This document shows, one piece after another, positions 12,141 to 24,131 of a stretch of 64,000 bases of DNA. Source of the DNA: Streptomyces sedi (lineage in GTDB: Bacteria > Actinomycetota > Actinomycetes > Streptomycetales > Streptomycetaceae); NCBI RefSeq assembly GCF_006335015.1, contig NZ_VDGT01000002.1, positions 1 to 64,000 of the forward strand, written 5' to 3'. The notes beneath the pieces were generated by a model. The model saw only the letters and a program-made list of their open reading frames with translations. It had not been told where the DNA came from and made no database searches. How positions within the stretch are numbered: position 1 is the stretch's first letter; every line of letters begins with the position of its first letter. Made by a program: the position numbers and the translations under genes.

Positions 12141-12749
12141 ATGTCCTCAAGCGCGCCCGCGCGTGCCCAGGGTGCCCAGCGGCGGGACGACATCCTGCGC
12201 ATCGCCATGGAGACCTTCGCCACGCGCGGCTACCACAACGCCTCGCTGGCCGAGATAGCCGAACGCTCGGGCCTCACCCAGGCCGGGGTGCTGCACCACT
12301 TCCGCACCAAGGCCGGTCTGCTGACCGGGGTGTTGGAGCTGCGCGACAAGTCGGACATCGAGGCGCTGGGCGACGGCCGCCCCCGTGGGCTGGGGATGCT
12401 GCGGCACCTGGTGGACACCGCGCGGCTGAACGCCGAGCGCGCCGGGATCGTGCGGCTCTACACGGTGCTCTCGGCGGAGAGCGTGACCGAGGGGCACCCG
12501 GCGCAGGAGTACTTCCGCAGCCGCTACACGGGGTTGCGTGCCATCGTGGTCAGCGCGCTGCGGGAGGCGGTGGACGCGGGGGAGGTGGCGTCGACCCTCC
12601 CGGTGGAGAGCGTGGCCAACGGGATCATCGCGGTGATGGACGGGCTCCAGACCCAGTGGCTGCTGGACCCCCGGGCCGTTGACATGGTGGAGACCACGGA
12701 ACGGGTGATCACCGCGCTGATCGGGGTGCGACCGCCGCCCGAGGGGTGA
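12141..12749 (+). CDS. TetR family transcriptional regulator
   Basis: The product is 202 residues with an N-terminal TetR helix-turn-helix (ILRIAMETFATRGYHNASLAEIAERSGLTQAGVLHHFRTK, about 19-58) and an all-helical ligand-binding domain. The motif YHNASLAEIAERSGLTQAGVLHHF resembles regulators linked to carbohydrate-active enzymes in actinobacteria. It is transcribed away from the secreted GH30 gene and toward the secreted sugar dehydrogenase, so a role in sensing a sugar-derived signal is likely but inferred. ATG at 12141; AAGGCAGGAG upstream is a weak ribosome site. Confidence 0.9.
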   Translation: MSSSAPARAQGAQRRDDILRIAMETFATRGYHNASLAEIAERSGLTQAGVLHHFRTKAGLLTGVLELRDKSDIEALGDGRPRGLGMLRHLVDTARLNAERAGIVRLYTVLSAESVTEGHPAQEYFRSRYTGLRAIVVSALREAVDAGEVASTLPVESVANGIIAVMDGLQTQWLLDPRAVDMVETTERVITALIGVRPPPEG

Positions 12750-12768: not shown

Positions 12769-13038
12769 AGATACGGGGTGTACGCGCTCATAGTGGGGGC
12801 GCGCGCTTCGCCCTGCCCGCTCACTTTGTCCGGCAGGTGGATGAAGTTGTGCCATCTTGTTTCAAAGGGGTTTCCAGTCAGGGAGAAAGTCGTTACCGTC
12901 CCTGTGGTGTACCGGTCAACTTCGAGCGGCGCGGCCGTCCCCCTCAACTGACGGCCGCACCGTTCACCTGGCGCGACGGCGCGCGCCTGTGCGACAGCCT
13001 CACCCCCCACCCCCGTGCGCTCTAACGGAGGAACGCTC
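12769..13038. promoter_or_regulatory. Upstream region of the sugar dehydrogenase gene
   Basis: This 270-base region contains an AT-richer island around 12840-12900 (for example TTGTGCCATCTTGTTTCAAA), unusual for the surrounding GC level and the likely promoter site. I cannot assign -35/-10 boxes with confidence. GGAGGAA at 13028-13034 is the ribosome site that fixes the GTG start at 13039. Confidence 0.45.
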
Positions 13039-15468
13039 GTGCACAGGAGACTCAAAGCCGTACTCGCGACCGTGGCGGGCATGACGCTCGCCTCGGCGGG
13101 TGTGGTGATCAGCCAACAGACGGCGACGGCGGCCGAACCGCCGCCGCTCGACGAGTTCCAGCAGGTCGAACTCGCCAAGGGCGAGGCCGAGATGGGCGAG
13201 CCGATGACGCTCGCCGTGCTGCCCGACACGTCCGTCCTGCACACGTCGAGGGACGGCACGCTGCGGCTCACCGGCGCCAACGGACTGACCCAGGTGGCGG
13301 GCGAGATCCCGGTCTACAGCCACGACGAGGAGGGTCTCCAGGGCGTCGGGGTCGACCCCGACTTCGAGCAGAACCGCCACATCTACCTCTACTACGCGCC
13401 GCCGATGGAGACCCCCGCCGGCGACGCGCCGTCCGACGGCACCGCCGAGGACTTCGCCCCCTACGACGGCGTGAACCGGCTCTCCCGCTTCACGTTGAAC
13501 GAGGACGGCACCCTCGACAACGGCAGTGAGGTCGAGATCCTGGACGTGGCGGCCAGCCGCGGCCAGTGCTGCCACGTCGGCGGCGACATCGACTTCGACG
13601 CCGAGGGCAACCTCTACCTGACCACGGGCGACGACACCAACCCGTTCGCCTCCGACGGGTTCAGCCCGATCGACGAGCGGGAGGACCGCAACCCGGCGTT
13701 CGACGCCCAGCGTTCCGCCGCCAACACCGACGACCTGCGCGGCAAGCTGCTGCGCATCCACGTCGAGGACGACGGCAGCTACACCATCCCCGAGGGCAAC
13801 CTCTTCCAGGAGGGCACCGAGGGCGCCCGGCCCGAGATCTACGCCATGGGCTTCCGCAACCCGTTCCGGATGAGCGTCGACCAGGCCACGGGCGACGTCT
13901 ACGTCGGCGACTACGGCCCCGACTCCGGCACCGCCGACCCCGAGCGCGGCCCGTCGGGGCAGGTGGAGTTCAACCGGGTGACCGAGCCCGGCAACTTCGG
14001 CTGGCCGTACTGCGTGGGCGACAACGAGCCGTACATCGACTACGACTTCGAGACCGGCACCTCGGGCGAGGCCTTCGACTGCGCCGCCCCCGTCAACGAG
14101 TCGCCCCACAACACGGGCCTGACCGAGCTGCCGCCGGCGCAGCCGGCCTGGATCCCCTACGACGGCGACTCCGTCCCCGAGTTCGGTGACGGCTCCGAGT
14201 CCCCGATGGCGGGCCCGGTCTACCGCTACGACGCCGACCTGGACTCCGAGCGCAAGTTCCCCGAGTCGCTGGACGGCACCTTCTTCGCCGCCGAGTTCGG
14301 CCGCCAGTGGATCAAGGCCGTGGAGCAGGACGAGGACGGCAACGTCTCCGGCATCCACGACTTCCTCTGGGAAGGCACCCAGGTCATGGACACCGCCTTC
14401 GGCCCCGACGGCGCGCTCTACGTCCTTGACTACGGCACCGGCTACTTCGCCGGCGACGAGAACAGCGCCCTCTACCGCATCGACTACACCGCGGGTGTCA
14501 GCGCCCCGGTGGCGAGGGCCAGCGCCGACGTCACCTCGGGCCAGACCCCGCTGGAGGTCGCGTTCAGCTCCGAGGGCTCGACCGACCCCGACGGCTCCGA
14601 GCTGACCTACGCGTGGGACTTCGGCGACGGCGCCACCTCCGAGGAGGCCGACCCGACCCACACCTTCGAGGAGGCCGGCACCTACAGCGTGGTGCTGACC
14701 GTGACCAACGCCGCCGGCGCCACCGGCAACGCGTCCGTGCAGGTCGTGGCGGGCAACACCGAGCCCGAGGTCAACCTGCTGCTGCCGGGCGACGGCGCGC
14801 TGGTCGACTTCGGCGACGAGGTGCCGTTCGAGGTGGAGGTCACCGACGCCGAGGACACGGAGATCAACTGCGAGGACGTGACCGTCACGTTCATCCTCGG
14901 CCACGACTCGCACGGCCACCCGCAGACCTCGGCCAACGGCTGCTCCGGCACCCTCCAGACCCTCGCGGACGGCGAGCACGACCCGAACGCCAACATCTTC
15001 GGGGTCTGGAACGCCGAGTACACCGACGCCGGCTTCGGCGACGCCCCGCCGCTGACCGGCAGCGACGAGGTCGTCAGCCAGACCAGGCAGCGCCAGGCCG
15101 AGCACTTCGGCGAGGCCGAGGGCCCGACCACGGTGAGCGTCGACGCCGCCCACGGCGGACGCGCGGTCGAGGTCACCGACGGCGGCTGGATCTCGTTCGA
15201 GCCGTATCTGCTGGACAACGCGACGGAGTTCACCGCACGCGTCGCCTCCGAGGGCGGCAGCGGCACCGTCGAGGTGCGCGCCGACGCCCCCGACGGCCAG
15301 CTGCTGGGCACCGTCGAGGTCGGCGACACCGGAGGCGCGGACGCCTTCGAGGACGTCACGACGGAGCTGGCCGACCAGCCGGCCGAGTCCACCACGCTCC
15401 ACCTGGTTTTCACGGGTGGCACGTTCAACCTGGACGACTTCACCTTCAGTACCGGAAGTGAGGAGTGA
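13039..15468 (+). CDS. Secreted PQQ-type sugar dehydrogenase with PKD and C-terminal carbohydrate-binding-like domain
   Basis: The product is 809 residues from GTG 13039 (MHRRLKAVLATVAG), with a signal peptide ending near TATAA. Residues about 40-490 form a six-bladed propeller of the soluble glucose/sorbosone dehydrogenase type (EGLQGVGVDPDF, HVGGDIDFD, AMGFRNPFRMSVD, GNFGWPYC). A PKD domain follows (about 500-580, with WDFGDG), then a beta-sandwich resembling a CBM6-type module at the C-terminus. The protein is strongly acidic. It probably oxidises a sugar or glycoside outside the cell using PQQ or a similar quinone; substrate and cofactor are unproven. Its stop overlaps the start of the ThuA-DUF1080 gene (GTGA), so the two secreted proteins are made together. 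Confidence 0.88.
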   Translation: MHRRLKAVLATVAGMTLASAGVVISQQTATAAEPPPLDEFQQVELAKGEAEMGEPMTLAVLPDTSVLHTSRDGTLRLTGANGLTQVAGEIPVYSHDEEGLQGVGVDPDFEQNRHIYLYYAPPMETPAGDAPSDGTAEDFAPYDGVNRLSRFTLNEDGTLDNGSEVEILDVAASRGQCCHVGGDIDFDAEGNLYLTTGDDTNPFASDGFSPIDEREDRNPAFDAQRSAANTDDLRGKLLRIHVEDDGSYTIPEGNLFQEGTEGARPEIYAMGFRNPFRMSVDQATGDVYVGDYGPDSGTADPERGPSGQVEFNRVTEPGNFGWPYCVGDNEPYIDYDFETGTSGEAFDCAAPVNESPHNTGLTELPPAQPAWIPYDGDSVPEFGDGSESPMAGPVYRYDADLDSERKFPESLDGTFFAAEFGRQWIKAVEQDEDGNVSGIHDFLWEGTQVMDTAFGPDGALYVLDYGTGYFAGDENSALYRIDYTAGVSAPVARASADVTSGQTPLEVAFSSEGSTDPDGSELTYAWDFGDGATSEEADPTHTFEEAGTYSVVLTVTNAAGATGNASVQVVAGNTEPEVNLLLPGDGALVDFGDEVPFEVEVTDAEDTEINCEDVTVTFILGHDSHGHPQTSANGCSGTLQTLADGEHDPNANIFGVWNAEYTDAGFGDAPPLTGSDEVVSQTRQRQAEHFGEAEGPTTVSVDAAHGGRAVEVTDGGWISFEPYLLDNATEFTARVASEGGSGTVEVRADAPDGQLLGTVEVGDTGGADAFEDVTTELADQPAESTTLHLVFTGGTFNLDDFTFSTGSEE

Positions 15469-16886
15469 GCGCGTTGAGTGAAACTACCCGCAGCACCCGG
15501 TTGAGACGAGCCTGCCTCCTGCTCGTCGGGGGCGCCCTGTGCGCCACCGCACTGCCCGCGATGTCGGCGGGGGCCGCCGAGGCCCCCGACGGCGCGGGGC
15601 AGGAGACCGCGGCCGAACCGTTCGACGTACTGGTCTTCTCCAAGACCGCCGGATTCCGGCACGACTCGATCGAAGCCGGCATCGAGGCGATCACGCAGCT
15701 GGGCGAGGCCAACGACTTCACGGTGACCGCGACCGAGGACTCGGCGCTGTTCACCGAGGAGAACCTGGCCCAGTACGAGGCCGTCCTCTTCCTGTCCACC
15801 ACGGGCGACGTGCTCGACGACACGCAGCAGACCGCGTTCGAGGGTTACATCAACAACGGCGGCGGCTACGTCGGCGTCCACGCCGCCGCCGACACCGAGT
15901 ACGACTGGGAGTGGTACGACGGCCTGGCCGGCGCCCTCTTCGACAGCCACCCGCAGATCCAGCAGGCGACCGTCAACGTCGAGGACCACGACCACCCGGC
16001 CACCGCGCACCTGGGCGACACCTGGGAGCGCACCGACGAGTGGTACAACTACCGCACCAACCCCAGGGAAAGCGCCCGCGTGCTGGCCTCGCTCGACGAG
16101 TCCTCCTACGAGGGCGGCAACATGGACGGCGACCACCCGATCGCCTGGTGCAAGGAGTACGAGGGCGGCCTCGCCTTCTACACCGGCGGCGGCCACACCA
16201 TCGAGTCCTTCGCCGAGGAGGACTTCCTCCAGCACCTGCTGGGCGGCATCCAGTACGCCGCCGGCCAGACCGACGCCGACTGCTCCGTCCCGAGCGAGGA
16301 CCCCGAGGACCCCGAGGAGCCCGAGTACACCTCGATCTTCGACGGCACCTCGACCGAGGGCTGGACCCAGGCCGGGCCCGGCGAGTTCGAGCTGGACGCC
16401 GAGGAAGGCACGCTGACCAGCGTCGGCGGCATGGGCCTGTTCTACTACGAGGCCGAGTCGTACGAGAACTTCTCGCTGCTGCTCGACTGGCGCCAGATCG
16501 GTGACTCCAACTCCGGTGTCTTCCTGGGCTCCCCGGTCTCCGACGACCCCTGGGACGCGGTGAACCAGGGCTACGAGATCCAGATCGACGACACCGACGT
16601 CCCCGAGCGGACGACCGGCTCCGTCTACACCTTCCAGGGCGCCGACATCGAGGCCAGGGACGCCGCGCTCAACCCCAACGGCGAGTGGAACACCTACGAG
16701 CTGCGGGTCGAGGGCGACCATCTCCAGATCTTCCTCAACGATGTGCTGATCAACGACTTCACCTCGACCGAGGAGGACCGTAGCCTGGCGGGACACATCG
16801 GGCTCCAGAACCACGGCGACGACGACACCGTGCAGTTCAGGGACGTCCGTGTCGCCGAGCTGACCGACACCGACTGCCAGCACTGA
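15465..16886 (+). CDS. Secreted ThuA and DUF1080 (3-keto-disaccharide hydrolase-like) fusion
   Basis: The product is 473 residues, GTG at 15465 inside the preceding stop codon. A signal peptide (about 1-38, ending SAGAAEA) leads to a ThuA domain (about 50-265: VLVFSKTAGFRHDSI, GGGYVGVHAAADTEYDW, GGHTIESF). ThuA proteins have a class-I glutamine-amidotransferase-like fold and occur in trehalose/3-keto-sugar pathways. After an acidic linker (PSEDPEDPEEPE) comes a DUF1080 lectin-like domain (about 285-468), a family that includes 3-keto-glucoside hydrolases. With the upstream dehydrogenase this suggests oxidation of a glycoside followed by cleavage of the keto product, both outside the cell. That pathway is inferred from families, not demonstrated. 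Confidence 0.88.
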   Translation: MSALSETTRSTRLRRACLLLVGGALCATALPAMSAGAAEAPDGAGQETAAEPFDVLVFSKTAGFRHDSIEAGIEAITQLGEANDFTVTATEDSALFTEENLAQYEAVLFLSTTGDVLDDTQQTAFEGYINNGGGYVGVHAAADTEYDWEWYDGLAGALFDSHPQIQQATVNVEDHDHPATAHLGDTWERTDEWYNYRTNPRESARVLASLDESSYEGGNMDGDHPIAWCKEYEGGLAFYTGGGHTIESFAEEDFLQHLLGGIQYAAGQTDADCSVPSEDPEDPEEPEYTSIFDGTSTEGWTQAGPGEFELDAEEGTLTSVGGMGLFYYEAESYENFSLLLDWRQIGDSNSGVFLGSPVSDDPWDAVNQGYEIQIDDTDVPERTTGSVYTFQGADIEARDAALNPNGEWNTYELRVEGDHLQIFLNDVLINDFTSTEEDRSLAGHIGLQNHGDDDTVQFRDVRVAELTDTDCQH

Positions 16887-17120: not shown

Positions 17121-18242
17121 ATGACAACAGAACCCCTGAAACGCGTCGGAGTCTGGCTGATCGGCGCCCGGGGCTCGGTGGCCACCACCACCGTGGCCGG
17201 CCGCGCCGCCCTCGCCGCCGGACTGCACCCACCCACCGGACTGGTCACCGCAGGGCCCGCGTTCGCGGGGGCCGGCCTGCCCCCGCTGGAACAGCTGGTG
17301 TTCGGGGGCCACGACACCCACCCCACCCCGTTGCCCAAGCGCGCCGAACAGCTCGCGGAGGCCGGGGTCCTGCCGCACGGACTGCCGTCCGCCGTCGCCG
17401 ACGAACTGGCGCGCGCCGACGCCGAGATCCGCCCCGGCGGCCCCCAACCCGACGACCCGCGCTCCGACGAGCGGCTGGTCGAGGCGTTCGCCGCCGACAT
17501 CGCCGCGTTCACCGCCGGCCACGGGCTGGCCCGCACCGTCGTCGTCCACCTGGCCAGCACCGAGCCGACGCCGGCCCCCGGCGACGCCCGCGCCCCGGCC
17601 AGCGCGCTCTACGCCGCCGCGGCGATCGCCGCCGGCGCCTCCTACGTCAACTTCACCCCCGCCACCGGGATGCACGCCGAGGGCCTCGCCGCCCGCGCCG
17701 CCGCCGCCGGGCTGCCGCACGCCGGACGGGACGGCAAGACCGGGCAGACCCTGCTGCGGGCCGTGCTGGCGCCGATGTTCGCCCAACGGGAGCTGGCCGT
17801 GCGCGCCTGGTCCGGCAGCAACCTGCTGGGCGGCGGCGACGGCGCCACCCTCGCCGACCCCAGGGCCGCCGCCGCCAAGAACGCCGGCAAGGCCAGGGCG
17901 CTCGCCGACAACCTGGGCAGCGAGCCCGAGGGCGAGACCCACATCGACCACGTGCCGGCGCTCGGCGACTGGAAGACCGCCTGGGACCACGTCGCGTTCG
18001 ACGGCTTCCTCGGCACCCGGATGGTGCTCCAGACCATCTGGCAGGGCTGCGACTCCGCGCTCGCCGCCCCCCTCGTCCTCGACCTGGCGCGGCTGGTGGC
18101 CCGCGCGCACGAGACGGGGATGACGGGACCCGTTCCCGGGCTCGGCTTCTTCTTCAAGGACCCGGACACCGACCCGCCGGGCCTCGCCGAGCAGTACCGC
18201 GAGCTGCTGGCGCTCGCCGACCGGCTGGCTGGCCGCTCGTGA
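17121..18242 (+). CDS. Inositol-3-phosphate synthase-like cyclase
   Basis: The product is 373 residues, shorter than the eukaryotic enzyme and typical for actinobacterial paralogues. It has a Rossmann NAD site (VWLIGARGSVATTTVAG, about 12-28), the catalytic-domain segment GKTGQTLL, the motif WSGSNLLGGGDGATLADP and a lysine-bearing KNAGKARAL. The known reaction is NAD-dependent cyclisation of glucose 6-phosphate to inositol 3-phosphate. It heads a seven-gene operon with EboA and EboE homologues. In other ebo clusters the cyclase slot is held by a 3-dehydroquinate-synthase-like EboD; here a MIPS-like cyclase occupies that place. The stop overlaps the GTG of the prenyltransferase gene. It may be a secondary paralogue rather than the housekeeping enzyme. 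Confidence 0.88.
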   Translation: MTTEPLKRVGVWLIGARGSVATTTVAGRAALAAGLHPPTGLVTAGPAFAGAGLPPLEQLVFGGHDTHPTPLPKRAEQLAEAGVLPHGLPSAVADELARADAEIRPGGPQPDDPRSDERLVEAFAADIAAFTAGHGLARTVVVHLASTEPTPAPGDARAPASALYAAAAIAAGASYVNFTPATGMHAEGLAARAAAAGLPHAGRDGKTGQTLLRAVLAPMFAQRELAVRAWSGSNLLGGGDGATLADPRAAAAKNAGKARALADNLGSEPEGETHIDHVPALGDWKTAWDHVAFDGFLGTRMVLQTIWQGCDSALAAPLVLDLARLVARAHETGMTGPVPGLGFFFKDPDTDPPGLAEQYRELLALADRLAGRS

Positions 18243-19096
18243 CCGGCGGCAGGGCCCGCGCCTGGGTGGAGCTGGTGCGCGGGCCGGCCGCGCTGACCGT
18301 GCCGGGCGACGCCCTGGCCGGCTCGGCGGCCGGCGGCGCGCCGGCCCGCAACACGGCGCTGGCCATCGGGAGTTCGGTCTGCCTCTACTGGGCGGGCATG
18401 GCGCTCAACGACTGGGCCGACCGCGCCGAGGACGCCCGCGACCGGCCGCACCGGCCGCTGCCGTCCGGCCGCGTCGCGCCCGCCGCCGCCTTCGGCGCCG
18501 CCGCCGGCCTCACGGCCGCCGGCCTGGCGCTGGCCGCCGCCGGCAACCGCGCCCAGCTGGCCACCGCCTCCGCGCTGGCCGCGACCGTCTGGGCCTACGA
18601 CCTCAAGCTGAAGCACACCGCGGCCGGCCCCGCCGCCATGGGCGCCGCCCGCGGCCTCGACCTGCTGCTCGGCGCCGCCGGCGCCGGCCGCGTCGCGCCC
18701 GCGGCGCTGCCGCCGGCCGCGCTGCTCGCCGCCCACACCACCGCCGTCACCCATGTCTCGCGGAACGAGGTCGGCGGCGGCGACCGGACCGCGCCGCTGG
18801 CCGCGCTGGCCACCACGGCCGGCATCGCCGCCGTCGTCAGCCGCCCCGGGCCCGAGGCCGGCACGGCGCGCGGCTGCGCCGCCAGCTACCTGCTGACGGC
18901 CGCGCCCGCCCTGACCCGCGCCGCCGGCCAACCCACCGGCGCGCACACCAAGGCCGGCGTCGTCGCCGGCCTCCAGGCGCTGGTGCCGCTCCAGGCCGGC
19001 CTCGCGGCCCGCGCCGGCGCCCGCGCCTCCGTGCCCGTGCTGCTGACGCTGCTGGGCGCGGCGCGGCGGCTGTCCAGAAAGGTCAGCGTCACATGA
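18239..19096 (+). CDS. eboC: UbiA superfamily prenyltransferase (EboC-type, SCO3242-like)
   Basis: The product is 285 residues with GTG at 18239 overlapping the upstream stop. It is a polytopic membrane protein, very alanine/leucine-rich. The first aspartate-rich motif is NDWADRAEDARDRPHRPLPSG (about 50-70). A second polar loop with YDLKLKHTAAGP follows. These motifs bind the prenyl diphosphate and Mg2+. UbiA-type enzymes transfer a polyprenyl chain to a polar acceptor in the membrane. With a cyclitol-phosphate synthase upstream, the acceptor could be a cyclitol or a derivative; that is inference. The second motif is degenerate relative to UbiA proper, as in the actinobacterial subgroup I recall as the SCO3242 family. 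Confidence 0.85.
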   Translation: MTGGRARAWVELVRGPAALTVPGDALAGSAAGGAPARNTALAIGSSVCLYWAGMALNDWADRAEDARDRPHRPLPSGRVAPAAAFGAAAGLTAAGLALAAAGNRAQLATASALAATVWAYDLKLKHTAAGPAAMGAARGLDLLLGAAGAGRVAPAALPPAALLAAHTTAVTHVSRNEVGGGDRTAPLAALATTAGIAAVVSRPGPEAGTARGCAASYLLTAAPALTRAAGQPTGAHTKAGVVAGLQALVPLQAGLAARAGARASVPVLLTLLGAARRLSRKVSVT

Positions 19097-19971
19097 GTCC
19101 CGGCTTCCGCCTGGCGTACGGCACCAACGGCCTCACCGACCTGCGCCTGGACGACGCCCTCGCCCTGCTGGCCGACCTCGGCTACCGGGGCGTCGCGCTG
19201 ACCCTCGACCACATGCACCTCGACCCGCTCGCCCCCGACCTGGCCCGCCGCACCGAGGCCGTCGCCGCCCGGCTGGACCGGCTCGGCCTCGCCGTCGCCG
19301 TCGAGACCGGCGCCCGCTACGTCCTCGACCCGCGCCGCAAGCACGGCCCCAGCCTGCTCGACCCCGACGCGGAGGCCAGGGGCCGGCGGATCGCGATGCT
19401 CACCGACGCCGTCCGCGTCGCCGCCGACCTCGGCGCCACCGCGCTGCACTGCTTCAGCGGCCACCGTCCCGAGGAGACCCCCGAGGAAGTGGCCTGGAGC
19501 CGGCTCGCGGACTCCTTCGCCCCGCTGCTGGACGCCGCCACCGACGCCGGAGTCCCGCTCGCCGTCGAACCCGAGCCGGGCCACCTGCTGGGCGACCTCG
19601 CCGGCTTCCACCGGCTGCGCCGCCGCCTGGACTCGCCCGAGGCGCTGCGGCTGACCCTGGACATAGGCCACTGCCGCTGCCTGGAGCCGGCGCCCGTCGC
19701 CGACTGCGTCACGGAGGCCGGCCCGTGGCTGGCGCACGTCCAGATCGAGGACATGCGGCGCGGGGTCCACGAGCATCTGCCGTTCGGCACCGGGGAGATC
19801 GACTTCCCGCCGGTGCTCGCCGCCCTCGCCGACACCGGCTACACCGGGCTCGTCTCCGTGGAACTGCCACGCCACTCGCACGCCGGACCCCAACTCGCGG
19901 CAGAATCGTTCCAGTTCCTGGAAGCCGCGCTCACCGACACCCGGATGAGCAGTCGTTCGGAGGTCCCCTGA
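19093..19971 (+). CDS. Sugar phosphate isomerase/epimerase-like TIM barrel
   Basis: The product is 292 residues with an ATGA overlap to the prenyltransferase gene. It belongs to the AP-endonuclease-2/xylose-isomerase-like fold. Candidate metal ligands are Glu in LAVEPEPGH, Asp and His in LTLDIGHCRC, His in HVQIED and Glu in VSVELPRHS. Members isomerise or epimerise sugars and also include 3-keto-sugar and cyclitol enzymes (inosose dehydratase and isomerase), which fits the inositol-like cyclase upstream. The exact reaction is unknown. The stop (TGA 19969-19971) shares a base with the eboA start, so the genes are tightly coupled. Confidence 0.85.
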   Translation: MSPGFRLAYGTNGLTDLRLDDALALLADLGYRGVALTLDHMHLDPLAPDLARRTEAVAARLDRLGLAVAVETGARYVLDPRRKHGPSLLDPDAEARGRRIAMLTDAVRVAADLGATALHCFSGHRPEETPEEVAWSRLADSFAPLLDAATDAGVPLAVEPEPGHLLGDLAGFHRLRRRLDSPEALRLTLDIGHCRCLEPAPVADCVTEAGPWLAHVQIEDMRRGVHEHLPFGTGEIDFPPVLAALADTGYTGLVSVELPRHSHAGPQLAAESFQFLEAALTDTRMSSRSEVP

Positions 19972-20609
19972 TGGACTCACCCACCCTGCCGCAGGCCCTG
20001 GCCGCGCTCCGCGCCGAGCTGGTCGAGGCCGTGCCCCACGAGGCCGCCGAGTGGCTGGAGGCGACCCTGGGCTGGGCCGCCGACGCGGACTGGGAGTCCT
20101 CGTTCGCCGTCGCCACCCGCCGCGTCGGCCGCGGCGCGCTGCCCGTGTCCGGGATGCCGGCCGCCGACGCGGCCCGCGTGCTGCTGCTGCACGCCGCCGA
20201 CGCCGACCTGGCGACCGTCACCCGCCTCTACCAGCAGGGCGACGCCGCCGAGCGCCGCGCCGTGCTCCAGGCGCTGTCCTATCTGCACCTGGGGCCGGAG
20301 GCCGTCCCGCTCGTCGAGGACGCCCTGCGCACCAACGACACCCGGCTGATCGTCGCCGCCGTCGGCGACTACGCCGCCGCCCACCTGGACCAGCACCAGT
20401 GGCGGCACGCCGTCCTCAAGTGCGTCTTCACCGGCGTCCCGCTGACCGCCGTCTCGGGCCTGGCCACCCGCACCGACGCCGAGCTGCTGCGGATGCTCGG
20501 CGACTACGCCGCCGAGCGCGAGGCCGCGGGGCGCCCCGTTCCCGAGGACGTCGGCGAGGTCCTCGCCGCCCAGCCGCCGCACCAGCCGCAGCACCCCCAG
20601 GAGCCCTGA
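19971..20609 (+). CDS. eboA: EboA family protein
   Basis: The product is 212 residues with a strong GGAGGT ribosome site eight bases upstream. It is all-helical, with a tryptophan-rich segment (EWLEATLGWAADADWESSFAVATRRVGR, about 23-50). Two HEAT-like helices (RAVLQALSYLHLGPEAVPLVEDALRTND) and VFTGVPLTAVSGL are characteristic of EboA. EboA is the marker of the ebo/edb cluster, implicated in cyanobacteria in moving scytonemin precursors to the periplasm and in Pseudomonas in repelling nematodes. Its biochemical role is unknown. The proline/glutamine tail (QPPHQPQHPQEP) is probably disordered. It overlaps both neighbours by one to three bases. Confidence 0.85.
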   Translation: MDSPTLPQALAALRAELVEAVPHEAAEWLEATLGWAADADWESSFAVATRRVGRGALPVSGMPAADAARVLLLHAADADLATVTRLYQQGDAAERRAVLQALSYLHLGPEAVPLVEDALRTNDTRLIVAAVGDYAAAHLDQHQWRHAVLKCVFTGVPLTAVSGLATRTDAELLRMLGDYAAEREAAGRPVPEDVGEVLAAQPPHQPQHPQEP

Positions 20610-21466
20610 TGCGCATCTTCGACCCGCACATCCACATGTCATCCCGCACCACCGACGACTACCGCGCCATGCGGGACGCGGGGGTGCGGGCCCTCGTCGA
20701 GCCCGCGTTCTGGCTGGGGCAGCCGCGCACCAACGTCGGCAGCTTCCTGGACTACTTCGACGCCCTCCTCGGCTGGGAGCCGTACCGGGCGGCCGAGCAC
20801 GGCATCACCCACCACTGCGCGCTGGCCCTCAACCCCAAGGAGGCCAACGACCCGCGGTGCGTCCCCGTGCTGGCCGAGCTGGACCGCTATCTGCGCAAGG
20901 ACAGCGTGGTCGCCGTCGGCGAGATCGGCTACGACTCGATGACGCCCGCCGAGGACGAGGCGCTGGCCGCCCAGCTCCAGCTCGCCGTGGACCACGAGCT
21001 GCCCGCCCTCGTCCACACCCCGCACCGCGACAAGGTCGCCGGCGTGACCCGCACCGTCGACGTGGTCAGGGAGTCGGCCCTGCCCACCGAGCGGGTGCTG
21101 CTGGACCACCTCAACGAGACGACGGTCGCCGCCGCCAAGGACAGCGGCTGCTGGCTCGGCTTCTCGGTGTACCCGGACACCAAGATGGACGAGACCAGGA
21201 TGGTCCGGTTGCTGCGCGAGTACGGAACGGAGAAGGTGCTGGTCAACTCGGCCGCCGACTGGGGCAACAGCGACCCGTTGAAGACCCGGAGGGTCGGCGA
21301 GGCCATGCTGGCGGACGGCTTCAGCGACGACGAGGTGGACCTGGTGCTCTGGCGCAACCCGGTGGCGTTCTACTCTCTCAGCGGGCGCCTCGACCTCGGC
21401 GAGCGGCCCGAACGCGACGACTACGCCGGCAACGTGCTGCGGCGCGGGGCGCCCGCCGACAGCTGA
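20609..21466 (+). CDS. eboB: TatD family metal-dependent hydrolase (EboB-type)
   Basis: The product is 285 residues starting MRIFDPHIHMSSRT; the HxH is the first metal-binding pair of the amidohydrolase barrel. Further ligands are Glu in VAVGEIGYDSMT, His in ALVHTPHRDK, His in LLDHLNE and Asp in NSAADWGNSDP. TatD proteins are Mg/Zn-dependent hydrolases, often nucleases, but ebo-linked members are thought to act on a metabolite. The ATG at 20609 overlaps the eboA stop (TGATG). The C-terminal extension (GERPERDDYAGNVLRRG) is longer than in housekeeping TatD. Confidence 0.88.
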   Translation: MRIFDPHIHMSSRTTDDYRAMRDAGVRALVEPAFWLGQPRTNVGSFLDYFDALLGWEPYRAAEHGITHHCALALNPKEANDPRCVPVLAELDRYLRKDSVVAVGEIGYDSMTPAEDEALAAQLQLAVDHELPALVHTPHRDKVAGVTRTVDVVRESALPTERVLLDHLNETTVAAAKDSGCWLGFSVYPDTKMDETRMVRLLREYGTEKVLVNSAADWGNSDPLKTRRVGEAMLADGFSDDEVDLVLWRNPVAFYSLSGRLDLGERPERDDYAGNVLRRGAPADS

Positions 21467-21477
21467 GAGGGTTACCT

Positions 21478-22662
21478 GTGCGCTTCCGACACCCCAGTGG
21501 TGGGCTGATACACCTCGCCTACTGCACCAACGTCCACCCCGCCGAGACCCTTGACGGGGTCCTCACCCAGCTCAGCGAGCACTGCGCGCCCGTGCGCCGT
21601 CGGCTGGGCCGGGAGCGTCTCGGCATCGGCCTGTGGCTCGCCGCCGACGTGGTCAAGGCCCTGAGCCGCGACCCGAAGGCGCGCGCCACGCTCACCGAGG
21701 CGCTGCGCCGGGAGGGCCTTGAGGTGGTCACCCTCAACGGCTTCCCGTATCGCGGCTTCGGCTCGGCGAAGGTCAAGCACCGCGTCTACCAGCCGGACTG
21801 GACCACGGACGCCCGTCGGGAGCACACACTCCAACTCGCGTGTCTGCTCGCCGGGCTGCTGCCCGACGACGTCACCGAGGGCACCATCTCCACCCTGCCG
21901 CTGGCCTGGCGCACCCCCTACGACGCGGCGGCCGAGTCGGCGGCCGTCCAGCAGCTGAACCGGCTCTCCCGCGAGCTGGACCTGCTGGCCAGCGGAAACC
22001 GCCGGCAGATCAGGGTCGCCCTGGAGCCCGAGCCGGGCTGCGTCATCGAGACCACCGACCAGGCCAGCAGGCTGCTGACCGGCCCCGAGGCGCCGCCCAC
22101 CGACCGGATCGGGCTCTGCCTGGACACCTGCCACCTGGCCACCGCGTTCGAGGACCCGGACGAGGCCATCGACCGGCTGGTGCGGCAGGAGGTCCCGATC
22201 TACAAGGCGCAGCTGTCGGCGGCCCTGCACGCCGAACACCCGGAACGGCCGGAGGTGCGCCAGGCGCTCGCCGAGTTCGTCGAGGAGCGCTTCCTGCACC
22301 AGACCAGGGAACGCGCCCAGGACGGCACCGTCACCGCCCGTGACGACCTGGACTTGGCGTTGGACGGCGAGAAGCCGCTGAGCGCCTCCGGGCCCTGGCG
22401 GGTGCACCACCACATCCCGCTGCACGCCAAGCCGCCGGCGCCGCTGTCCACCACGCTGCCGGTGCTGCGGCAGTCCCTGGCCCGGCTGGTCGGCGGGCGG
22501 CGCCCGCTCACCCGGCACCTGGAGGTGGAGACCTACACCTGGCAGGTGCTCCCGCCCGAGCTGCGCCCCACCGACGCCGACCAGCTGGCCGACGGCATCG
22601 CCGCCGAACTCTCGCTGGCGCGCGACCTGTTGACCGACCTCGGCCTGAAGGAGGAGGCGTGA
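21478..22662 (+). CDS. eboE: Metabolite traffic protein EboE (TIM barrel)
   Basis: The product is 394 residues from GTG 21478, with GAGAGGG upstream. The N-terminus (GLIHLAYCTNVHPAETLDGV) is the family hallmark. The barrel carries RVALEPEPGCVIET, IGLCLDTCHLA and WRVHHHIPLHAK, supplying likely metal-binding Glu, Asp and His residues as in xylose-isomerase-like enzymes. EboE is always found with EboA and is presumed to handle the small molecule the cluster exports; the chemistry is unproven. It follows the TatD gene by 11 bases. This is the second TIM-barrel isomerase-like protein in the operon. Confidence 0.9.
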   Translation: MRFRHPSGGLIHLAYCTNVHPAETLDGVLTQLSEHCAPVRRRLGRERLGIGLWLAADVVKALSRDPKARATLTEALRREGLEVVTLNGFPYRGFGSAKVKHRVYQPDWTTDARREHTLQLACLLAGLLPDDVTEGTISTLPLAWRTPYDAAAESAAVQQLNRLSRELDLLASGNRRQIRVALEPEPGCVIETTDQASRLLTGPEAPPTDRIGLCLDTCHLATAFEDPDEAIDRLVRQEVPIYKAQLSAALHAEHPERPEVRQALAEFVEERFLHQTRERAQDGTVTARDDLDLALDGEKPLSASGPWRVHHHIPLHAKPPAPLSTTLPVLRQSLARLVGGRRPLTRHLEVETYTWQVLPPELRPTDADQLADGIAAELSLARDLLTDLGLKEEA

Positions 22663-22730
22663 GCCGCGGCCGGCGCCCGCACGCCGGCTGATCCTCCCCG
22701 AGCAATCACGCACCGAAAGGAAGTGCTGCC

Positions 22731-24131
22731 ATGAGCCGCCGACTGGTGGTCATCGACGTGGTGGGACTGACGCCCGAACTGCTCGACCACATGCCCACGC
22801 TCAAGGCGGTCGCCACCGCCGGCTCCCAGGCGCCGCTCGGCACCGTCCTCCCGGCGGTGACCTGCTCGGCGCAGGCGACGTTCCTCACCGGCGAACTCCC
22901 CTCGGGCCACGGCATCGTCGGAAACGGCTGGTACTTCCGCGAGTTGGGCGACGTGCTGCTGTGGCGGCAGCACAACGCCCTCGTCGGCGGCGAGAAGATC
23001 TGGGACGCCGCGCGCAAGGTCGACCCCGAGTACACGGTGGCCAACGTCTGCTGGTGGTACGCCATGGGCGCCGACACCGACTACACCGTCACGCCCCGGC
23101 CGATCTACTACGCCGACGGCAAGAAGGACCCCGACTGCTACACCAGGCCGCCGGAGCTGCACGACGAACTCACCTCGCGCTTCGGTGAGTTCCCGCTCTT
23201 CACCTACTGGGGGCCGACGGCGGCCATCGACTCCTCGCGGTGGATCGCCCACGCCGCCCGCCGCCTGCTGACCACCCGTCAGCCCGACCTGACCCTGGTC
23301 TATCTGCCGCACCTGGACTACGACCTCCAGCGCTTCGGTCCCGACTCCCCGCAGGCCAGGGCGGCTGCCGCCGAACTCGACGGCGAGCTGGCCCCGTTGC
23401 TCGACGCGGCGCGCGCGCAGGAAGCGACGGTGGTCGCGCTCTCCGAGTACGGCATCAGCCCCGTCAGCCGCCAGGTCCACATCAACCGCAGGCTGCGCGA
23501 GGCCGGGCTGCTTGAGGTCTACACCCAGGCCGGGATGGAGTACCTGGACCCGTGGGTCTCCCGCGCGTTCGCCGTCGCCGACCACCAGGTCGCCCACGTC
23601 TACGTGCGCCGCCCGGAGGACCTGGAGCCCGCGCGCGAGGCGCTGAAGGACCTGCCGGGCATCGCCGAACTCCTCGACGACGAGGGCAAGGCCGCCCACG
23701 GCCTGGACCACCCCCGCGCCGGCGACCTGGTCGCGGTCGCCGACGAGGACTCCTGGTTCACCTACTACTACTGGCTGGACGACGCCGACGCGCCGGACTA
23801 CGCCCCCACCGTCGAGATCCACCGCAAGCCCGGCTACGACCCGGCGGAGCTGTTCCTCAACCCGGAGGACCGCCTCGTCAAGGCCCGCGCGGGGGCGGCG
23901 CTGGTCCGCAAGAAGATCGGGATGCGCTACCGCATGAACGTCGTCCCCCTCGACGGCGCCCAGATCCGAGGCAGCCACGGCCGCCTCCCCACCGACCCCC
24001 GCCACCAGCCGGTGCTGATCTGCTCCGACCCCGACGCGCTGAACGGCGACGAGGTCGCCGCGACCGAGGTCAAGTCGCTGCTGCTGCGGCTGGCGGAGCT
24101 GGAGAAGGGCGAGGAACGGGCAGGGGAGTAG
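22731..24131 (+). CDS. eboF: Type I phosphodiesterase/nucleotide pyrophosphatase family (EboF-type)
   Basis: The product is 466 residues with GAAAGGAAG eight bases before the ATG. It belongs to the alkaline phosphatase superfamily. VVIDVVGLTPELLDHMPTL supplies the first metal Asp, TLPAVTCSAQATFLTG contains the nucleophilic Thr/Ser, GHGIVGNGWYF follows, then YLPHLDYDLQRFG and ALSEYGISPV for the remaining metal ligands. RGSHGRLPTDPRHQPVLIC near the C-terminus gives the last His. It has no signal peptide, so it acts inside the cell. Ebo clusters usually contain such an enzyme, presumably to remove a phosphate or nucleotide from the intermediate. It ends the operon. Confidence 0.88.
   Translation: MSRRLVVIDVVGLTPELLDHMPTLKAVATAGSQAPLGTVLPAVTCSAQATFLTGELPSGHGIVGNGWYFRELGDVLLWRQHNALVGGEKIWDAARKVDPEYTVANVCWWYAMGADTDYTVTPRPIYYADGKKDPDCYTRPPELHDELTSRFGEFPLFTYWGPTAAIDSSRWIAHAARRLLTTRQPDLTLVYLPHLDYDLQRFGPDSPQARAAAAELDGELAPLLDAARAQEATVVALSEYGISPVSRQVHINRRLREAGLLEVYTQAGMEYLDPWVSRAFAVADHQVAHVYVRRPEDLEPAREALKDLPGIAELLDDEGKAAHGLDHPRAGDLVAVADEDSWFTYYYWLDDADAPDYAPTVEIHRKPGYDPAELFLNPEDRLVKARAGAALVRKKIGMRYRMNVVPLDGAQIRGSHGRLPTDPRHQPVLICSDPDALNGDEVAATEVKSLLLRLAELEKGEERAGE

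What the first reader, a model, noticed from the sequence alone, without database searches (positions are those of the whole stretch)
17121..24131. Ebo-like operon with an inositol-phosphate synthase in place of EboD
Seven genes, mostly overlapping by a few bases, encode a MIPS-like cyclase, UbiA prenyltransferase, TIM-barrel isomerase, EboA, TatD, EboE and an alkaline-phosphatase-fold phosphodiesterase. Canonical ebo clusters have a 3-dehydroquinate-synthase-like cyclase (EboD). Here a different NAD-dependent sugar-phosphate cyclase fills the slot. The simplest hypothesis is a prenylated cyclitol, made in the membrane, trimmed by the phosphodiesterase and TatD, and used as a carrier or exported lipid. 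Product and role are unknown in actinobacteria.
Basis: partly seen in the sequence, partly recalled or inferred. Interest (0 to 1): 0.8.

Follow-up and report, generated by a model that had tools for sequence, protein, structure and literature searches.

The report
Ebo operon rebuilt around inositol
A seven-gene bacterial operon of the poorly understood 'ebo' kind carries its own archaeal-type inositol-phosphate synthase where related clusters carry a different ring-forming enzyme, and it likely makes a prenyl-tailed inositol lipid that would help the cell handle molecules outside its membrane.

Summary
Window 17121-24131 encodes MIPS, UbiA, TIM isomerase, EboA, TatD (EboB), EboE and phosphodiesterase (EboF); EboA and EboE pass NCBI's cut-offs. 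The genome has a second MIPS of mycobacterial type and no EboD-type cyclase. The operon MIPS is of the Archaeoglobus Ino1 type and keeps the residues mutated in its crystals. The swap is systematic: of 246 genomes of the genus, 167 have both EboE and this MIPS, 71 neither; none of 112 actinobacterial loci matched EboD, all 5 other-phylum EboB loci fetched did. MIPS-UbiA-TIM clusters also occur in three haloarchaea (no EboA or EboE) and, on an EboD-type EboE/EboF backbone, in Gemmatirosa, so cyclase, prenyltransferase and isomerase seem to move together, though some loci lack UbiA. Secreted-type sugar dehydrogenase/ThuA genes adjoin in 50 of 59 full-flank named loci, as in the window. Best reading: the dedicated MIPS makes inositol phosphate, which UbiA likely prenylates to a membrane lipid serving extracytoplasmic enzymes. 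No chemistry is tested. New variant of a known kind.

The parts
17121..18242 (+). Dedicated inositol-phosphate synthase (MIPS, Archaeoglobus Ino1 type)
   Evidence: PF07994, PF01658; closest solved relatives 1u1i/3qvw/3qvx/3qw2; model TM 0.87 to 3qw2; N234, K253, K257, K285, K346 invariant in 13 aligned rows
18239..19096 (+). UbiA prenyltransferase, SCO3242 family (EboC slot)
   Evidence: NF045897 333 bits over cut-off 260; NF035940 EboC 128 bits under cut-off 250; Asp-rich motif N57 D58 D61 D65 invariant in 19 rows
19093..19971 (+). TIM-barrel sugar isomerase/epimerase-like protein, accompanies MIPS-type clusters
   Evidence: PF01261; homologues beside MIPS in Gemmatirosa (45% identity) and three haloarchaea (29-34%)
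19971..20609 (+). EboA, predicted all-helical protein
   Evidence: NF035938 169.6 bits over cut-off 50; model pLDDT 95.8, no PDB match at E 0.001
20609..21466 (+). TatD-family hydrolase (EboB)
   Evidence: PF01026; 61-79% identical in 10 other actinobacterial loci, 55.7% in the Azospirillum ebo cluster
21478..22662 (+). EboE TIM-barrel protein
   Evidence: NF035939 419 bits over cut-off 250; GTG start read from sequence
22731..24131 (+). Type I phosphodiesterase / alkaline-phosphatase fold (EboF)
   Evidence: PF01663 225 bits; nearest solved relatives phosphonoacetate hydrolases, best E 1e-5
15465..16886 (+). Secreted-type ThuA plus 3-keto-disaccharide hydrolase protein, conserved neighbour
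   Evidence: PF06283 273.3 bits, PF06439 145.5 bits; hydrophobic N-terminal segment; recurs beside the operon
13015..15468 (+). Secreted-type GSDH sugar dehydrogenase with PKD and CBM6, conserved neighbour
   Evidence: PF07995, PF18911, PF03422; hydrophobic N-terminal segment; recurs beside the operon

Best explanation
This is an Ebo-type operon in which a dedicated archaeal-type inositol-phosphate synthase stands where other bacteria's ebo clusters carry the DHQS-like cyclase EboD; it likely turns glucose 6-phosphate into inositol phosphate, which the UbiA enzyme is predicted to join to a prenyl chain, giving what would be a membrane-anchored cyclitol lipid. The TIM isomerase would adjust the cyclitol; the phosphodiesterase would remove or cut the phosphate that this cyclase, unlike EboD-type cyclases, leaves on the ring; EboA would hold a complex together; the roles of TatD and EboE stay open. 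The lipid would serve traffic or redox handling of small molecules for secreted enzymes, here a GSDH-type sugar dehydrogenase and a ThuA/3-keto-disaccharide hydrolase. Shown by calls: gene identities, the swap, its spread, the linked prenyltransferase branch, the conserved secreted-type neighbours. Inferred: every reaction, the lipid and its role.
For: Two MIPS in the genome; the other one matches M. tuberculosis 1gr0 at 7.6e-180, the operon one matches Archaeoglobus Ino1 (1u1i) best and 1gr0 only at 6e-10. In a 59-row tree 35 ebo-linked MIPS plus 4 from loci without ebo genes form one group (97/99), far from 8 mycobacterial-type copies (100/100). N255, K278 and K367, mutated in crystals 3qw2, 3qvw and 3qvx, correspond to invariant N234, K257 and K346. 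EboE and this MIPS at E 0.001: both in 167, EboE only 4, MIPS only 4, neither 71 of 246 genomes. 63 of 66 named loci with at least 5 kb upstream of TatD have MIPS within 6.5 kb. EboD references matched none of 112 actinobacterial loci and all 5 other ebo loci fetched through EboB. UbiA of MIPS clusters (actinobacteria, haloarchaea, Gemmatirosa) split from four EboD-cluster EboC at 100/100, whereas Gemmatirosa's phosphodiesterase and EboE group with the EboD type (99/98, 100/100): cyclase, prenyltransferase and isomerase appear to go together. In G475 MIPS and UbiA are both missing from the ebo locus and lie together elsewhere. G360 (one contig) has the ebo genes and UbiA but a single MIPS that is not the ebo type, as expected if the needed product is ordinary inositol phosphate. 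Secreted-type GSDH and/or ThuA genes beside the operon in 50 of 59 full-flank named loci, against 8 genes of each family in the window's whole genome. Published: ebo genes are needed to bring a scytonemin precursor to the periplasm (PMC6282210, abstract start, passages and one section); EboC homologues farnesylate acceptors in vitro (PMC9235831, parts 1-2 of 4).
Against: No enzyme of the operon has been assayed. The EboC homologues tested in print prefer aromatic quinoline acceptors; cyclitols were not among the results I read (PMC9235831). MIPS and UbiA are not inseparable: 7 of the 80 named loci show MIPS without UbiA; 4 of those genomes hold a full-length SCO3242-type UbiA elsewhere, one only fragments, and the genomes of L113 (Thermomonospora) and L075 none; of the 4 ebo-type MIPS loci without ebo genes, only L150 and L153 have UbiA beside it, L152 and L157 do not. 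Some loci keep the ebo genes without MIPS (L020, L149, L155, L107, L119, L185), and one of 14 EboE genomes in the phylum sample (G279) has no ebo-type MIPS that I could place. The Gemmatirosa argument rests on one locus whose MIPS and TatD sit on long branches. 9 of 59 loci have neither GSDH nor ThuA. The operon UbiA falls under NCBI's EboC cut-off. The haloarchaeal loci have no EboA and only weak, generic EboE matches.
Confidence: 0.47

Rival explanations
1. The UbiA product is a redox-active prenylated ring (a quinone-like molecule): inositol phosphate is isomerised, oxidised and dehydrated by the TIM and Gfo/Idh-type enzymes toward a polyhydroxybenzene, then prenylated, and it takes electrons from the secreted sugar dehydrogenase, ScyD/E-type or multicopper-oxidase neighbours.
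For: EboC homologues prenylate aromatic acceptors in vitro (PMC9235831, parts read); neighbours include GSDH, ThuA, ScyD/ScyE-family and multicopper oxidase genes; TIM proteins of these loci score weakly with inosose dehydratase IolE (22-50 bits, cut-off 290); a Gfo/Idh gene lies in L151.
Against: IolE scores are far under cut-off; no Gfo/Idh gene in the window's operon; no aromatising enzyme is recognisable in the seven-gene core; scytonemin mutants were read as an export defect (PMC6282210).
Confidence: 0.15
2. The MIPS paralogue makes a different cyclitol phosphate (other sugar phosphate, other ring size), as Ari2 of the MIPS family makes a five-membered ring.
For: Ari2 shows that the family can change product (molecule name); a second copy beside another MIPS invites new function.
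Against: Operon MIPS is much nearer to Ino1 (2.3e-92) than to Ari2 (8.8e-18), and Ari2 is nearer to the genome's other MIPS (1.7e-62); residues mutated in Ino1 are conserved; G360 manages without an ebo-type MIPS.
Confidence: 0.12
3. The MIPS only raises the general inositol supply (phosphatidylinositol, mycothiol) under the operon's regulation; the Ebo product is made from something else.
For: Inositol is a common precursor in actinobacteria (general knowledge); some ebo copies lack MIPS (L020, L149, L155) and some ebo-type MIPS stand without UbiA.
Against: Near-perfect co-occurrence and adjacency, same company in haloarchaea and Gemmatirosa, no EboD match where MIPS is present, UbiA branch follows the cyclase.
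Confidence: 0.14
4. The locus is a sugar-uptake and 3-keto-sugar catabolism island in which the Ebo genes are passengers kept by shared regulation.
For: ThuA, 3-keto-disaccharide hydrolase, GSDH, TIM, Gfo/Idh and ABC transporter genes in or near loci (that the transporters carry sugars is inferred); L150 and L153 keep MIPS, UbiA and GSDH without EboA/TatD/EboE.
Against: The same operon occurs without GSDH or ThuA in the flanks of L072, L098, L106 and L139-L142, so it is a portable module; a UbiA prenyltransferase has no known role in sugar breakdown.
Confidence: 0.08

Closest known systems
ebo operon (eustigmatophyte-bacterial operon; PMC5133447, PMC6282210)
   Same: EboA, EboB (TatD), EboE and EboF homologues, a UbiA prenyltransferase, one cyclase gene; ScyD/ScyE-family genes adjoin in two Streptomyces plasmids, as scytonemin genes do in cyanobacteria (passages of both papers).
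   Different: MIPS (keeps the phosphate; general knowledge) instead of EboD; an added TIM isomerase; UbiA of a separate branch; other gene order; secreted-type GSDH/ThuA neighbours.
EDB ('edible') cluster of Pseudomonas fluorescens (passages in PMC6282210 and PMC9655573)
   Same: Said to contain a full ebo cluster and to act through small molecules that repel nematodes.
   Different: An eboD homologue is named in the passage; indole products; no MIPS mentioned. Its sequence was not examined here.
Archaeoglobus fulgidus L-myo-inositol-1-phosphate synthase Ino1 (1u1i, 3qvw, 3qvx, 3qw2)
   Same: Fold (TM 0.87) and residues N255, K278, K367, also K274 and K306.
   Different: 34% identity; here dedicated to an Ebo operon.
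Digeranylgeranylglyceryl phosphate synthase (6m31, UbiA superfamily)
   Same: Best match of the UbiA among solved structures; it prenylates a hydroxyl of a phosphorylated polyol (reaction recalled).
   Different: Weak similarity (E 0.0013, residues 47-157); chlorophyll synthase follows at 0.011.
Haloarchaeal TatD-TIM-UbiA-TIM-MIPS-PDE loci (L163, L164, L165)
   Same: MIPS, UbiA, TIM, TatD and phosphodiesterase homologues, with GSDH (L165) or ThuA (L164) nearby.
   Different: No EboA, no clear EboE. I know of no description; PMC8305020 lists the Haloferax MIPS HVO_B0213 under polar-lipid synthesis (passages).

Membership tests
canonical ebo operon | EboA present | tested here: met
   NF035938 169.6 bits, cut-off 50; the full-length model NF035937 gives 71 bits, under its cut-off 320
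canonical ebo operon | EboE present | tested here: met
   NF035939 419 bits, cut-off 250
canonical ebo operon | EboB (TatD-like) present | tested here: met
   55.7% identity over 98% to the Azospirillum ebo TatD; actinobacterial and EboD-cluster TatD form one group of 14 rows (88/95)
canonical ebo operon | EboF phosphodiesterase present | tested here: met
   PF01663 225 bits; groups with EboD-cluster EboF, apart from haloarchaea (100/100)
canonical ebo operon | EboC prenyltransferase by NCBI's model | tested here: not met
   NF035940 128 bits, cut-off 250; SCO3242 family NF045897 333 bits, cut-off 260. The EboC model is narrow: Azospirillum EboC scores 89
canonical ebo operon | EboD (DHQS-like sugar phosphate cyclase) present | tested here: not met
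   No match in the locus; the genome's two DHQS-family genes are AroB (348 bits, cut-off 305) and another cyclase (PRK06203 model 120 bits, cut-off 333, where Azospirillum EboD scores 571). PMC5133447 also reports some ebo operons without eboD (passage)
inositol-phosphate synthase (PF01658/PF07994) | both domains over curated cut-off | tested here: met
   99.9 and 110.7 bits, cut-offs 27 and 25
inositol-phosphate synthase (PF01658/PF07994) | residues mutated in Ino1 crystals conserved | tested here: met
   N234, K257, K346 match N255, K278, K367; K253 and K285 match K274 and K306, whose role is recalled
inositol-phosphate synthase (PF01658/PF07994) | makes inositol phosphate from glucose 6-phosphate | not testable with these tools
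   needs an assay
mycothiol-type INO1 (TIGR03450) | score over equivalog cut-off | tested here: not met
   38 bits, cut-off 638
Ari2-type five-membered cyclitol-phosphate synthase | closer to Ari2 than to Ino1 | tested here: not met
   8.8e-18 against 2.3e-92
MIPS-type Ebo cluster (this report) | MIPS with UbiA and TIM isomerase in one cluster with EboB and EboF homologues | tested here: met
   13 of 14 EboE genomes of the phylum sample, window included; Gemmatirosa and 3 haloarchaea

The most novel reading that the evidence does not exclude
Actinobacteria, haloarchaea and some Gemmatimonadota share a so far undescribed lipid cofactor built from inositol phosphate and a prenyl chain by a portable MIPS-UbiA-TIM cassette; it is the inositol counterpart of the EboD-derived lipid of cyanobacteria and Bacteroidetes, and it works at the outer face of the membrane as the carrier or electron acceptor for secreted sugar-oxidising enzymes.
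Probability: 0.2. Interest if true: 0.9.

Novelty: new variant of a known kind. Interest (0 to 1): 0.7.

Why it matters
What the Ebo pathway makes is an open question; for EboD the substrate (sedoheptulose 7-phosphate) has been inferred from phylogeny (PMC5133447 passages). A lineage that fills the same slot with an inositol-phosphate synthase, an enzyme family of known reaction and easily labelled product, turns the question into a direct experiment: feed labelled inositol and look for the lipid. The operon is common in the window's genus, Streptomyces by protein similarity (EboE in 171 of 246 genomes; 97% MIPS match). SCO3242, which names the UbiA's family, and SCO3243, annotated as myo-inositol phosphate synthase, are listed under the calcium-dependent antibiotic cluster of S. 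coelicolor (PMC3610822 passage; I did not compare their sequences). Related clusters lie in two domains of life. If the cassette reading is right, cyclase and prenyltransferase specificity can be tested by exchange between variants.

Tried and rejected
Considered and set aside: (1) MIPS as sole copy: rejected, two copies of different types. (2) A hidden EboD elsewhere in the genome: the C19 cyclase is not EboD by NCBI's model and sits beside a DegT-like aminotransferase gene by my reading of its sequence. (3) Chance neighbourhood: rejected by co-occurrence and order. (4) EboA fold as a clue to function: the model is confident (pLDDT 95.8) and all-helical, but no PDB match has E under 0.001; the best is an artificial HEAT-like alphaRep protein, E 0.3, TM 0.47; it only agrees with the helical-repeat scaffold idea in PMC6282210. 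(5) Pfam and NCBIfam on EboA used a wrong frame; corrected. (6) Phosphodiesterase substrate from PDB relatives: only weak matches to phosphonoacetate hydrolases and PafA. (7) Literature on MIPS with ebo genes, or on prenylated inositol from such clusters: nothing in the searches; the library holds only CC-licensed PMC papers, so this is weak evidence of absence. (8) The role of K274 and K306 in Ino1 is recalled; the paper sought is not held. (10) MIPS tree: rows are a choice of my loci (13 of the 80 named ones); L039 and L044 fell under the search threshold and L160 was dropped (N-gapped); L041, L043, L045 and L047 turned out to belong to a third MIPS type; the tool warned of long branches and of unlike amino-acid make-up in 7 of the 8 mycobacterial-type rows and two others. 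(11) UbiA tree: rows under 240 residues were dropped, 17 of 19 kept.

Full report
WHAT IS THERE. Curated models name them: inositol-phosphate synthase (PF07994, PF01658), UbiA (NF045897, SCO3242 family prenyltransferase, 333 bits against a cut-off of 260), an AP_endonuc_2 TIM barrel, EboA (NF035938, 169.6 against 50), TatD, EboE (NF035939, 419 against 250) and a type I phosphodiesterase. The closest named protein hits are from Streptomyces (97% to S. zhaozhouensis), so I take the window's genus to be Streptomyces.

THE MIPS IS A DEDICATED, ARCHAEAL-TYPE COPY. The genome has two MIPS genes. The other one, which I take to be the housekeeping copy, matches the M. tuberculosis enzyme 1gr0 at 7.6e-180. 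The operon's MIPS matches Archaeoglobus fulgidus Ino1 best (3e-53 alone, 2.3e-92 as a profile) and 1gr0 only weakly. Its AlphaFold model superposes on Ino1 with TM 0.87. The residues changed in the Ino1 mutant crystals, N255A, K278A and K367A, are conserved as N234, K257 and K346, and K274 and K306 as K253 and K285, in all 13 rows aligned. In a tree of 59 MIPS, 35 linked to ebo genes and 4 from loci without ebo genes form one supported group (97/99); 8 mycobacterial-type copies are far away (100/100). Of the 14 genomes with EboE in the phylum sample, 13 have two MIPS and one (G268) only the operon copy; in G051, G075, G097 and G279 one copy is of a third type.

NO EboD. The genome's two DHQS-family genes are AroB and a further cyclase that scores 120 bits with the model on which Azospirillum EboD scores 571 (cut-off 333). 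Among 117 loci compared by BLAST at E 1e-8, three EboD references matched none of the 112 actinobacterial ones (many cut short by contig ends) and each of the 5 others: Azospirillum, Mycetohabitans, Gloeothece, Salipiger and Ketogulonicigenium plasmids, whose RefSeq annotation says 3-dehydroquinate synthase. These 5 are ones I chose to fetch among the 10 non-actinobacterial rows listed, which lists 40 of 51 records; Gloeothece has only TatD and EboD. The four annotated Streptomyces plasmid loci (L139-L142) read inositol-3-phosphate synthase, SCO3242 family prenyltransferase, isomerase, EboA, TatD, EboE, phosphodiesterase.

HOW GENERAL. EboE occurs in 14 of 296 genomes sampled over the phylum; 13 of the 14, the window's included, have the full MIPS-to-phosphodiesterase order. 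The fourteenth (G279, L032) is fragmentary and its second MIPS is of a third type on another contig. In 246 genomes of the genus, EboE is in 171 and the ebo-type MIPS in 171 at E 0.001, a few of them weak or in fragments: both 167, EboE only 4, MIPS only 4 (two of these weak), neither 71; Fisher p 1.5e-51, which ignores shared ancestry. In 51 pairs of places that I picked from the listings, 50 lie 3.8-5.7 kb apart; G475 is the exception. In the 80 named loci, 66 have at least 5 kb upstream of TatD and 63 of these have MIPS within 6.5 kb; the misses are L075 (MIPS about 8 kb away), L107 and L119.

THE CASSETTE. Three haloarchaeal plasmids carry TatD, TIM, UbiA, a second TIM, MIPS and phosphodiesterase together (L163 Halobaculum, L164 Halocatena, L165 Natronococcus), with 41.5-44.7% identity to the window TatD, 41-43% to MIPS and 36-41% to the phosphodiesterase. 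A tblastn search finds no EboA or EboD there and only weak EboE matches that fall on the TIM genes; two TIM proteins of L163 score 22 and 20 bits with the EboE model, cut-off 250. A fourth haloarchaeon, Halomarina (L162), has the MIPS among glycosyltransferases. Gemmatirosa (L168) carries EboE (460 bits), TatD, phosphodiesterase, UbiA, MIPS and TIM, and no EboA or EboD match. In the UbiA tree (17 rows) the four EboD-cluster EboC separate from all MIPS-cluster UbiA, Gemmatirosa included, at 100/100. In the phosphodiesterase and EboE trees Gemmatirosa groups instead with the EboD clusters (99/98 and 100/100); the TatD tree leaves it on a long branch. So the cyclase, the prenyltransferase and the isomerase appear to have been exchanged together while EboE and the phosphodiesterase stayed. 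It is one case. G475 points the same way: its ebo locus lacks MIPS and UbiA, which lie together at 4.26 Mb.

EXCEPTIONS. Seven of 80 named loci have MIPS without UbiA (L059, L067, L075, L092, L101, L111, L113). Whole-genome searches find a full-length SCO3242-type UbiA elsewhere in four (L059, L067, L092, L111), fragments in one (L101) and none in two (L075, L113). Four ebo-type MIPS stand in loci without ebo genes; UbiA is beside two of them (L150, L153), not the other two (L152, L157). L020, L149 and L155 have the ebo genes and UbiA but no MIPS; L020 and L155 have an FAD oxidoreductase and, by sequence, an inositol monophosphatase-family gene upstream (tested in L020: PF00459, 194 bits). G360 (L149), a single contig, has one MIPS in the genome, not of the ebo type; I read this as the housekeeping enzyme supplying the same compound, an inference.

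THE WIDER LOCUS. Directly upstream in the window lie a GSDH-type sugar dehydrogenase with PKD and CBM6 domains and a ThuA plus 3-keto-disaccharide hydrolase protein, both with a hydrophobic N-terminal segment ending in an AxA-like site, which I read as signal peptides (no signal-peptide program was run). Among 59 named loci with full flanks, 43 have both upstream, 1 has both upstream and a copy downstream, 2 have ThuA only upstream, 4 have one or both downstream, 9 have neither. The window's genome has 8 genes of each family in 6.6 Mb, so the repeated adjacency is not chance, and the change of side in Amycolatopsis (L080, L112) and G204 (L026) argues for function rather than inertia. Other loci have other partners: ScyD/ScyE-family and multicopper oxidase genes (L140, L142), a 4Fe-4S, amidase and glutamine synthetase set (L139, L096, L106), FAD monooxygenase and methyltransferase (L072, L098). 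The operon thus looks like a module joined to different extracytoplasmic or secondary pathways.

MECHANISM. What is known from print: ebo genes are needed to bring a scytonemin precursor to the periplasm of Nostoc, and a prenylated cyclitol or lipid carrier has been proposed (PMC6282210 passages and one section; PMC5133447 passages; PMC6092422 passage); EboC homologues farnesylate quinoline-type acceptors in vitro (PMC9235831, parts 1 and 2 of 4). PMC5133447 noticed EboA fused to a xylose-isomerase-like domain in Actinobacteria (passage), but the word inositol does not occur in the held text of that paper, of PMC6282210 or of PMC9235831. My reading: MIPS makes inositol phosphate, the TIM protein adjusts it, UbiA prenylates it, the phosphodiesterase deals with the phosphate that MIPS, unlike DHQS-type cyclases, leaves on the ring (reaction chemistry recalled; PMC5133447 says the EboD-type product lacks phosphate), and the membrane lipid serves secreted enzymes. 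Every reaction is inferred. The main alternative is that the ring is aromatised and the product is quinone-like, which would fit the aromatic acceptors of EboC and the oxidative neighbours.

VERDICT. The finding is real and wider than reported. It fails two tests of the canonical ebo operon (no EboD; UbiA under the EboC model's cut-off), so I file it as a new variant of a known kind, not as a canonical member. Searches for an earlier description found none in a library limited to CC-licensed papers.

Noticed in passing
L166 8932-17633; L167 8980-18292: Hymenobacter and Roseomonas plasmids carry another MIPS type in a cluster with Gfo/Idh oxidoreductase, YcaO-like protein, sugar isomerase and PIG-L deacetylase. 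MIPS of this type is also the second copy in four actinobacterial genomes (L041, L043, L045, L047; neighbours there not looked at).
   Followed up: partly
L020 12912-15808; L155 11977-14353: Second ebo copies without MIPS in the window's genus have an FAD oxidoreductase and an inositol monophosphatase-family gene upstream of UbiA.
   Followed up: partly
L150, L153, L152, L157: Ebo-type MIPS beside a GSDH gene and ABC transporter genes but without EboA, TatD, EboE and phosphodiesterase; UbiA beside MIPS in L150 and L153, none found in L152 and L157.
   Followed up: partly
L140 2880-4079 and 13008-14486; L142 3096-4298 and 13814-15322: ScyD/ScyE-family gene directly upstream of MIPS and a multicopper oxidase downstream on two Streptomyces plasmids, reminiscent of scytonemin clusters.
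   Followed up: no
L139 11545-16741; also L096, L106: Recurrent set downstream of the operon: 4Fe-4S protein, 648-residue protein without Pfam match, amidase, glutamine synthetase.
   Followed up: no
L181 8578-9750 (own genome, contig 19): A DHQS-family cyclase that is neither AroB nor EboD by NCBI's cut-offs, beside what reads as a DegT-like aminotransferase and a TIM protein; perhaps an aminocyclitol cluster.
   Followed up: partly
L146: Gloeothece plasmid with only TatD and EboD of the ebo set in the stretch fetched, next to ferritin-like genes that also adjoin the Mycetohabitans ebo cluster (L145).
   Followed up: no
window 12141-12749: Gene that reads as a TetR-like regulator just upstream of the GSDH gene; possible regulator of the whole locus.
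   Followed up: no
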